A stretch of 64,000 nucleotides of DNA from Natronosalvus rutilus (lineage in GTDB: Archaea; Halobacteriota; Halobacteria; Halobacteriales; Natrialbaceae), in NCBI RefSeq assembly GCF_024204665.1, contig NZ_CP100355.1, forward strand, positions 1,717,451 to 1,781,450, read 5' to 3'. Position 1 is the first letter of the stretch. Each line of letters opens with the position of its first letter. The translations under genes were made by a program, and so were the position numbers. The notes under the pieces were generated by a model. It saw only the letters and a list, made by a program, of their open reading frames with translations, did not search any database and was not told the DNA's origin. Of the stretch, positions 59,242-61,368 are shown piece by piece.

Positions 59242-61368
59242 ATGAACGAACAGCCAGGCGACGACGAGCGAACCACTCGTCCGTACGAATCCGGGACCGG
59301 GAACTCTCGCTGGTGGCCGACCACGCGGCGACGACTGCTCCAGGCGACCGCCGCTGCGGGTGGCCTCGCCGCAATCGGTAACTCGACGCTCGCCCAGGAG
59401 AGCGAGACGATCGAACTCGGGGGTGAGACCAGCGGATGGCAAGGAGTCGCTCCGGACGAAATCGAAGGCGAAACCAACCCAACGCTGGAACTCGAGGAGG
59501 GGACGACGTACGAACTCACGTGGGAGAACCTCGACGGCCAGGCGCACAACATCGTCATCGTCGACGGCGACGGCGAGGAACTCGAGCGCACCGAACTCCT
59601 GGCCGAGGAAGGGGAGACCCAGACGCTCGAGTTCGAGGCGACGAGCGAGATGGCGGAGTACTACTGCGAACCGCACGCAGGAACGATGCGCGGGGAGGTC
59701 TCGATCGACGGTGAAACCGACGACGAAACAGGTGACGAGTCGGAAGACGGCGAGGTACCGGCGTTCTTCGATCCGGGGGCCGAAATCGGGCTCCAGTCGG
59801 TCGCGGAGGGGATGACGGCGCCGACCGACTTTGCCGTGATCGGTGGGGGTCAGGACCAGGACCAGGACCAGTACCTCGTCGCCGATCAAACGGGCGAACT
59901 ATGGCTCGTCGACGGCGACGGACGGCGAGAGGAACCGTTCCTCGACGTGAGCGACCGGCTGGTCGAACTCGGGACGTTCGAAGGATCGTACGCCGATCCG
60001 AACCAGGACTACGACGAACGGGGTCTCCTCGGCGTGGAGGTCCACCCGAACTTCGCCGAGAACTGTCGCTTCTTCGTTCACTACAGCGCGCCGCCGAACG
60101 ACGAGACGCCCGAGGGCTGGAGCCACGTCGAAGTCATCTCGGAGTTCCACGCGTCGGGCGACCGGAGTGAAGCCGACCCGGACTCGGAGACCGTCCTCCT
60201 GGAGTTCCAGAAACCGCAGTACAACCACGACGCGGGTCCGATGGCCTTCGGACCTGACGGCTACCTGTACGTCCCGATGGGCGACGGCGGCGGCGCGAAC
60301 GACGACATGGAGGGCCACCTCGAGGACTGGTACGACGAGAACGCCGGCGGTAACGGACAGAACGTCACCGATACCCTCCTCGGTGGCATCCATCGGATCG
60401 ACGTCGACGCGGAGAGCGACGACAAACCCTACGCCATCCCGGACGACAATCCCCTGGTCGACGTGGACGATGCCATCGACGAGTACTACGCGTGGGGGTT
60501 CCGGAACCCGTTCGGCATCTCGTTCGACAGCGACGGGCGACTGTTCGTTTCCGACGCCGGGCAGGACCTCTACGAGGAGGCGAACCTCGTCGAAGCCGGC
60601 GGCAACTACGGCTGGAACGTCAAGGAGGGGACCCACTGCTTCAGTACGGATAGCCCGAGCGATCCGCCCGCAGACTGTCCGGACGCCGCTCCCGACGAAC
60701 CGCCGTACAACGGCCAGGAACTGCAGGATCCGATCGTCGAATACCCCCACGTGTACGAGGGCGAGACGGTCGGGATCACGATTATCGGCGGCCACGTGTA
60801 CGAGGCCGACCAGCTCGAGGAGTTACAGGGCAAGTACGTCTTCGGCGACTGGACGTCCGATCCGGCTCGCCAGGCGCCGGCGGGTCGACTCCTCGCGGCG
60901 TCAGAGCCTACCGACGACGACGGGGGTTCGGGCGACGACGGGGGTTCGGACGACAACGAGACGGCGGATACCAACTCGAGCGACGATGCTGACGGCGGGG
61001 AAGAGGACGTCGAGGCCATACCCCGTGACGAACTCTGGGAGATGGAAGAACTCCAGGTCTCGGGGACCGACGACGGTTCCTTCCCCTACTTCGTTCGGCA
61101 GTTCGGCCAGGACGGCGACGGTAACGTCTACGTCCTCGCAAATCGAGAGGGTGTGCCGTCGGGCGACACGGGAGTCGTCATGAAGATCGTGCCATCGGGC
61201 GAGGGAGACGACATCTCGGTATCCGAGGATGGGGCTGACGAACAGGAGTCGGACGAGGAGGCGACCGAGGACACGCAGGATGAAGATGAAGACCAGGGTG
61301 ACGGGACTGACAGCAACGAAACAGATAACAACGAAACTGACGGTAACGAAACCGACAACGAGACGTAA
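59242..61368 (+). CDS. Tat-exported cupredoxin-sugar dehydrogenase fusion
   Basis: A 708-residue protein from ATG 59242. A Tat signal (RRRLLQATAAAGGLAAIG, residues 29-46) precedes a blue-copper domain (about 55-157) with ligands H102 (GQAHNIVI), C142, H145 and M149 (YYCEPHAGTMRGEV). After an acidic hinge comes a PQQ/sorbosone dehydrogenase-type beta propeller (about 180-560: RGLLGVEVHPNFAENCRFFV, YNHDAGPMAFGPDGYLYVPM, YYAWGFRNPFGISFD). The C-terminal ~90 residues are acidic and end in four NET sequons, likely glycosylated. Copper may accept electrons directly from the sugar-oxidising domain at the cell surface. GTTTATC 28-34 bp upstream fits a short leader. Confidence 0.88.
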   Translation: MNEQPGDDERTTRPYESGTGNSRWWPTTRRRLLQATAAAGGLAAIGNSTLAQESETIELGGETSGWQGVAPDEIEGETNPTLELEEGTTYELTWENLDGQAHNIVIVDGDGEELERTELLAEEGETQTLEFEATSEMAEYYCEPHAGTMRGEVSIDGETDDETGDESEDGEVPAFFDPGAEIGLQSVAEGMTAPTDFAVIGGGQDQDQDQYLVADQTGELWLVDGDGRREEPFLDVSDRLVELGTFEGSYADPNQDYDERGLLGVEVHPNFAENCRFFVHYSAPPNDETPEGWSHVEVISEFHASGDRSEADPDSETVLLEFQKPQYNHDAGPMAFGPDGYLYVPMGDGGGANDDMEGHLEDWYDENAGGNGQNVTDTLLGGIHRIDVDAESDDKPYAIPDDNPLVDVDDAIDEYYAWGFRNPFGISFDSDGRLFVSDAGQDLYEEANLVEAGGNYGWNVKEGTHCFSTDSPSDPPADCPDAAPDEPPYNGQELQDPIVEYPHVYEGETVGITIIGGHVYEADQLEELQGKYVFGDWTSDPARQAPAGRLLAASEPTDDDGGSGDDGGSDDNETADTNSSDDADGGEEDVEAIPRDELWEMEELQVSGTDDGSFPYFVRQFGQDGDGNVYVLANREGVPSGDTGVVMKIVPSGEGDDISVSEDGADEQESDEEATEDTQDEDEDQGDGTDSNETDNNETDGNETDNET

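What the first reader, a model, noticed from the sequence alone, without database searches (positions are those of the whole stretch)
59242..61368. Blue-copper domain fused to a PQQ-type sugar dehydrogenase
All four type-1 copper ligands (H102, C142, H145, M149) lie in front of a sorbosone/glucose dehydrogenase propeller on one exported chain. That would carry electrons from sugar oxidation straight to copper and on to the membrane. No PQQ synthesis genes are in the window, so cofactor supply is open.
Basis: partly seen in the sequence, partly recalled or inferred. Interest (0 to 1): 0.5.

Follow-up and report, generated by a model that had tools for sequence, protein, structure and literature searches.

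The report
Copper domain fused to sugar-dehydrogenase-like propeller
A salt-loving archaeon exports one protein that joins a blue-copper electron carrier to a sugar-oxidising-type propeller; the pairing is widespread in its relatives and occurs in more than one layout, but whether it really uses the cofactor PQQ is untested.

Summary
The ORF 59242-61368 (+, 708 aa) carries a Tat signal, a plastocyanin-like domain (PF00127) with all four type-1 copper ligands (H102, C142, H145, M149) and a six-bladed GSDH propeller (PF07995). It is no oddity: at least 26 of 145 sampled Halobacteria genomes, and 44 of 80 loci kept from the named-genome scan, hold such a fusion, mostly named "PQQ-dependent sugar dehydrogenase" where annotated. 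Copper ligands are invariant in 68 of 68 fused sequences. In 6 proteins the copper domain sits inside the propeller, and in one locus the two parts are neighbouring genes, which argues for real functional coupling. The PQQ reading is only partly supported: the catalytic His (H329), the Arg-Asn pair (R421, N422) and a calcium-loop Gly (G440) are kept, but the basic residues that hold PQQ's carboxylates in sGDH/Asd are not conserved, and the closest solved structure by sequence is hedgehog-interacting protein. pqqC is absent from the genome and reaches its cut-off in 0 of 145 Halobacteria, so any PQQ must be imported. The window protein has no membrane anchor. Best reading: a secreted copper analogue of fungal quinohemoprotein pyranose dehydrogenase. 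New variant of a known kind.

The parts
59242..61368 (+). whole gene, 708 aa, ATG to stop
59242..59394 (+). Tat signal region (residues 1-51; RRR at 29-31; no lipobox Cys)
   Evidence: TIGR01409 22.1 bits, cut-off 16.7; sequence; cleavage after A51 is inferred
59398..59715 (+). plastocyanin-like type-1 copper domain (residues 53-158)
   Evidence: PF00127; strands 55-156
59545..59547 (+). H102, copper ligand
59665..59676 (+). C142 and H145, copper ligands
59686..59688 (+). M149, copper ligand
59770..61200 (+). six-bladed GSDH/HHIP-like propeller (residues 177-653)
60226..60228 (+). H329, equivalent of the sGDH catalytic His144
   Evidence: 32 of 32 rows; alignment to YliI
60502..60507 (+). R421-N422, equivalent of sGDH Arg228-Asn229 at the PQQ ketones
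   Evidence: 32 of 32 rows
60559..60561 (+). G440, equivalent of the Ca-loop Gly (sGDH Gly247)
   Evidence: 32 of 32 rows
60916..61026 (+). acidic disordered insert in the propeller (residues 559-595)
   Evidence: pLDDT under 50
61201..61365 (+). acidic Asp/Glu/Asn/Thr-rich tail, no anchor
   Evidence: sequence; pLDDT under 50 at 664-708

Best explanation
A secreted two-domain redox protein of haloarchaea. Shown: Tat signal, complete type-1 copper ligand set, GSDH-fold propeller with the catalytic His, the Arg-Asn pair and a Ca-loop Gly in place, no anchor, recurrent pairing of the two domains. Inferred: the propeller oxidises an aldose or related compound outside the cell using PQQ taken from the environment plus Ca2+, with the PQQ carboxylates held by residues other than those of sGDH (candidates from sequence position only: H503, the W537 loop, R260, K461); electrons pass one at a time to the copper domain and from there to a membrane-bound cupredoxin (halocyanin, or the lipoprotein cupredoxin coded at L005) and a terminal oxidase. 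It would thus be a copper counterpart of the fungal cytochrome-fused pyranose dehydrogenase.
For: Both domains over their cut-offs. Copper ligands in 68 of 68 and His, Arg and Asn each in 68 of 68 fused sequences. Fold: PQQ-enzyme structures 3a9g Z 38.0, 2g8s 37.6, 3das (PQQ-bound) 35.4, sGDH 31-32. The pairing exists in three layouts: copper domain N-terminal in 65 of 79 sequences examined, inserted between blades 1 and 2 in 6 of 79 (the other 8 of 79 being unfused), and as neighbouring genes in L045. 8 of 46 loci compared carry an 8-bladed PQQ-type dehydrogenase near the gene. Precedent: fungal CcSDH/CcPDH lacks several sGDH PQQ ligands and is PQQ-dependent (PMC4133262, passages), with Lys377 replaced by a Trp-containing loop (PMC6881789, passages). 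Haloarchaea use a copper protein, halocyanin, as one-electron carrier (PMC8305020, passages).
Against: The Arg pair of blade 6 is not conserved: 50 of 109 branch members have Arg at neither candidate position and 32 of 109 have no basic residue in the stretch, whereas 21 of 21 Asd sequences keep the pair. The Lys is absent, though it is also absent in 20 of 21 Asd sequences. The nearest relative by sequence among solved structures is HHIP, which is not an enzyme (recalled). TIGR03606 scores 66.4 against a cut-off of 434.55. No pqqC in the genome. The window gene has no evident sugar or respiratory neighbour. The PQQ-type neighbour of some relatives scores below the TIGR03075 cut-off and also matches an 'empty quinoprotein' family.
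Confidence: 0.5

Rival explanations
1. The propeller oxidises its substrate but with a different or no quinone cofactor, or acts on another substrate class such as a secreted prenylated or phenolic metabolite; copper still takes the electrons.
For: Carboxylate ligands of PQQ not conserved; pqqC over its cut-off in 0 of 145 genomes; 9 of 46 loci lie by TIM-barrel, inositol-phosphate-synthase or TatD genes and, in L120, a UbiA-type EboC-like gene; weak hit to ScyD/ScyE.
Against: The His and the Arg-Asn pair that act on PQQ's ketones are kept in 109, 108 and 109 of 109 branch members; the EboC and EboE matches are below their cut-offs; the window gene is not in that context.
Confidence: 0.22
2. 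The propeller is a non-catalytic, HHIP-like binding module that anchors or scaffolds the copper domain in the brine or on a surface polymer.
For: HHIP is the best sequence and Foldseek match.
Against: HHIP aligns His-Asp where this family has Arg-Asn, so this family keeps the active-site pair that HHIP lacks; 109 of 109 branch members keep the catalytic His and the Asn.
Confidence: 0.15
3. Two domains on one chain with no electron transfer between them; copper serves a separate task such as copper or oxidant handling.
For: Linker 158-172 is predicted disordered; no interdomain contact could be tested.
Against: The pairing exists in three layouts and the copper ligands are never lost.
Confidence: 0.1

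Closest known systems
Coprinopsis cinerea pyranose dehydrogenase CcSDH/CcPDH (AA8 cytochrome b + AA12 six-blade quinoprotein + CBM1)
   Same: Secreted chain joining a one-electron carrier domain to a six-bladed PQQ sugar dehydrogenase fold; catalytic His and Arg-Asn kept; Lys377 absent, with a Trp-bearing loop at that place
   Different: Carrier is haem b, not copper; propellers are distant (AA12 structures Z about 26, 13-14% identity); no cellulose-binding domain here; [quoted passage not shown]
Soluble aldose sugar dehydrogenase (Asd; E. coli YliI 2G8S, Pyrobaculum 3A9G, Streptomyces 3DAS)
   Same: Propeller fold (Z 35-38), catalytic His, Arg-Asn, Ca-loop Gly
   Different: No copper domain; blade-6 Arg pair present in Asd (21 of 21) and not conserved here; Asd is a separate clade in the tree
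Acinetobacter sGDH (1CRU/1CQ1)
   Same: Fold (Z 31-32) and catalytic core residues
   Different: Lys377 and the C-terminal Arg set not conserved; no copper domain
Human hedgehog-interacting protein (HHIP)
   Same: Best sequence and Foldseek match to the propeller
   Different: HHIP lacks the Arg-Asn pair in the alignment; no copper domain
Halocyanin and the halocyanin-cbaD fusion of haloarchaea
   Same: Type-1 copper electron carrier fused to a redox partner in haloarchaea (PMC8305020, passages)
   Different: The window protein is not hit by the halocyanin model TIGR03102 at E 1 or better; halocyanin is predicted lipid-anchored (title of a reference seen), this protein is not

Membership tests
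type-1 copper (plastocyanin/azurin family, PF00127) | score over the curated cut-off | tested here: met
   36.0 bits against 21.2
type-1 copper (plastocyanin/azurin family, PF00127) | His-Cys-His-Met ligand set | tested here: met
   H102, C142, H145, M149; 68 of 68 fused sequences
type-1 copper (plastocyanin/azurin family, PF00127) | copper bound, blue band near 600 nm | not testable with these tools
   needs protein
halocyanin domain (TIGR03102) | match to the curated model | tested here: not met
   not among hits up to E 1
GSDH fold family (PF07995) | score over the curated cut-off | tested here: met
   103.1 bits against 25; fold Z up to 38
PQQ sugar dehydrogenase (sGDH/Asd) | catalytic His | tested here: met
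   H329, 32 of 32 rows, aligned with YliI H147
PQQ sugar dehydrogenase (sGDH/Asd) | Arg-Asn at the PQQ ketones | tested here: met
   R421, N422, 32 of 32 rows
PQQ sugar dehydrogenase (sGDH/Asd) | Ca2+ loop Gly-Pro carbonyls | tested here: inconclusive
   Gly kept (G440, 32 of 32); the Pro position is Q441 here, but Glu in 20 of 21 Asd sequences; carbonyl ligands do not show in sequence
PQQ sugar dehydrogenase (sGDH/Asd) | C-terminal Arg pair binding PQQ carboxylates | tested here: inconclusive
PQQ sugar dehydrogenase (sGDH/Asd) | Lys377 | tested here: not met
   T538 in a W537 loop; the Lys is also missing in 20 of 21 Asd and in fungal AA12, so it does not define PQQ use
PQQ sugar dehydrogenase (sGDH/Asd) | PQQ binding and PQQ-dependent activity | not testable with these tools
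   needs protein
glucose/sorbosone PQQ dehydrogenase subfamily TIGR03606 | curated cut-off 434.55 bits | tested here: not met
   66.4 bits
AA12 pyranose dehydrogenase | sequence membership | tested here: inconclusive
   no AA12 model among Pfam hits up to E 1; fold Z 26

The most novel reading that the evidence does not exclude
A class of extracellular 'quinocupro-' sugar dehydrogenases of haloarchaea, in which a blue-copper domain is placed at two different points of the same propeller and feeds electrons from imported PQQ straight into the copper level of the respiratory chain, with a PQQ clamp unlike that of sGDH and Asd.
Probability: 0.38. Interest if true: 0.6.

Novelty: new variant of a known kind. 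Interest (0 to 1): 0.4.

Why it matters
Sugar quinoproteins fused to haem carriers are known and valued for direct electron transfer to electrodes; a copper-fused, salt-tolerant version would be a new module of that sort and would show how haloarchaea, whose one-electron carrier is a copper protein, oxidise substrates outside the cell. A 2016 survey says that glucose/sorbosone dehydrogenase had, to its authors' knowledge, not been characterised in any member of the Halobacteria (PMC4766312, passage).

Tried and rejected
Operon partner for the window gene: none found; neighbours are a MetE-type synthase, a glyoxalase-fold protein, a response regulator and a polysaccharide-deacetylase-like protein below its cut-off. 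Relatives sit in three different contexts, so gene context gives no single substrate.

Membrane anchoring of the window protein: rejected on sequence. By regular expression, lipobox in 0 of 47 fused and 24 of 38 unfused proteins; C-terminal membrane segment in 6 of 47 and 1 of 38 (L096 shows a similar tail, that the expression missed).

'No complex III, so this bypasses it': considered because Natrialbales are reported to lack bc1, but the window's genome has a cytochrome b match (154.8 bits), so I do not claim it.

PqqE as a marker: uninformative; it rings below its cut-off in the genome and in 14 of 14 controls.

A PDB search with an 84-residue piece returned mostly designed propellers.

PMC13384848 (passages) concerns a PQQ-stimulated eukaryotic protein that the paper likens to PQQ alcohol dehydrogenases; set aside. 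No paper on the fusion itself was seen in the listings (open-licence PMC full text only), so 'not in print' is limited to those searches.

Full report
What is there. Window 59242-61368 (+) is one open frame of 708 aa from ATG. From the N terminus: Tat signal (TIGR01409 22.1 bits, cut-off 16.7) without lipobox; plastocyanin-like domain (PF00127, E 9.4e-9) with H102, C142, H145, M149; a six-bladed GSDH propeller (PF07995, E 2.4e-29) with an acidic disordered insert at 559-595; an acidic tail without anchor. AlphaFold2 on 32 relatives gives mean pLDDT 76.4, with both domains high and the signal, linker, insert and tail low.

How common it is. In 145 Halobacteria genomes drawn by the tool, 65 have a match at E 1e-40 or better; by my hand count of that table at least 26 of 145 have one frame that covers the copper domain and reaches into the propeller (a lower bound: at most 7 candidates per genome were scored, and insertion-type layouts would be split). 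The window's own genome has a second fusion (L010 5461-7767, 769 aa) and an unfused, lipobox-bearing paralogue (L011 5057-6364, 436 aa). In the plasmid collection 169 records match, 5 over at least 80% of the query; the five listed with such coverage are haloarchaeal, four annotated 'PQQ-dependent sugar dehydrogenase' and one 'plastocyanin'. So the gene is in public databases, usually under half of its identity.

The copper half. All four ligands are kept in 68 of 68 fused sequences. That set joins the 32 A1 rows, named-locus ORFs longer than 400 aa and 22 Asd-type sequences, exact duplicates removed; the short ORFs of the frame-broken loci L076 and L109 were dropped by the length limit, and some organisms may enter twice under a G handle and a name. 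The halocyanin model TIGR03102 does not hit the protein. The genome also codes a Tat lipoprotein with a 56% identical copper domain (L005 1492-2094 minus) and two further relatives (L006, L007).

The propeller half. By sequence the nearest solved structures are HHIP (E 3e-21), then sGDH (same order with the profile). By fold, sugar dehydrogenases and HHIP tie (7cdy Z 38.4, 3a9g 38.0, 7pgm 37.9, 2g8s 37.6; sGDH 31-32; AA12 26). In the tree, Asd-type sequences separate from this HHIP-like branch. Residues: E259, H329 and N422 in 109 of 109 branch members and R421 in 108 of 109. Papers name His144, Arg228, Asn229 and the Gly247/Pro248 calcium loop for sGDH (PMC6881810, passages), and Lys377 and Arg408 for PQQ binding (PMC6881789, passages). 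The Lys position is T538 here, beside W537 (W in 82 of 109). The blade-6 position that I align by hand with Arg408 is R619 here, but R in only 31 of 109; the one I align with the other Arg of the pair is F617. About half of the branch (50 of 109) has Arg at neither 616 nor 619. Canonical Asd relatives from the same class of archaea keep the Arg pair: 21 of 21 with YliI included and L009 left out. Thus the catalytic core is there and the usual carboxylate clamp is not seen. Fungal CcSDH is a warning in both directions: its authors note that several PQQ-binding residues are missing in it and in HHIP, yet it is PQQ-dependent (PMC4133262, passages).

Cofactor. PqqC (TIGR02111) gives no match in the genome and passes its cut-off in 0 of 145 Halobacteria, with one 19.4-bit sub-threshold match; pSymB as positive control gives 428.2 bits. 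PQQ would have to come from outside.

Evidence that the two halves work together. In 65 of 79 sequences examined the copper domain precedes the propeller; in 6 of 79 (L102, L103, L104, L114, L120, L123) it lies between blade 1 and blade 2; 8 of 79 are unfused. In L045 the two are separate ORFs on one strand about 0.2 kb apart, and that propeller nests among fused ones. The insertion types fall in a well-supported clade that also holds N-terminal types (9 of 9 fused, support 0.987; its printed members include both), so relocation and independent gain cannot be told apart; the fusion label changes at least 8 times by parsimony on a tree with weak deep nodes.

Contexts of relatives. Of 46 loci compared (44 named loci, the window and L010), 9 share methylmalonyl-CoA mutase and a glyoxalase-fold, epimerase-like gene, 9 share TIM-barrel genes (6 of them also inositol-phosphate synthase and TatD genes), and 8 share a PF01011-type dehydrogenase and an unknown Tat protein. 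In the two of these loci whose frames I read (L120, L095) the fused gene is convergent with its downstream neighbour. The window copy has none of these neighbours.

Verdict. Real, widespread, not found as studied in the papers searched, and mostly annotated by its propeller alone.

Noticed in passing
L102, L103, L104, L114, L120, L123: The copper domain is inserted inside the propeller between blades 1 and 2 instead of at the N terminus.
   Followed up: partly
L120 5931-8576 and similar loci (L085, L090, L094, L097, L102, L103, L114, L117): Fused genes beside an Ebo-like set (in L120 a UbiA/EboC-like protein at 196 bits, below its cut-off of 250; TIM barrels, TatD, inositol-phosphate synthase), hinting at a secreted metabolite rather than a sugar.
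   Followed up: partly
L095 6970-9915 and seven similar loci (L089, L093, L098, L100, L101, L105, L115): An 8-bladed PQQ-type dehydrogenase and an unknown Tat protein lie near the fused gene; the dehydrogenase also matches an 'empty quinoprotein' family.
   Followed up: partly
L010 7969-9501: The genome's second fusion lies next to a multicopper oxidase gene on the same strand.
   Followed up: no
C termini in L075, L092, L094, L096, L097: Some fused members end in a PGPGF-type tail with a membrane segment, as archaeosortase substrates do (motif recalled), while many unfused members carry a lipobox.
   Followed up: partly
L009: An Asd-like paralogue of the genome keeps the Arg pair but has Thr in place of the catalytic His.
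   Followed up: no
L006 1495-2214 minus: The same kind of copper domain is fused to the C terminus of another, unidentified domain.
   Followed up: no
L076 (Haladaptatus halobius plasmid), L109: The gene appears split over two frames.
   Followed up: no
genomes G044 and G073: Two genomes of one genus carry six matches each, an expansion of the family.
   Followed up: no
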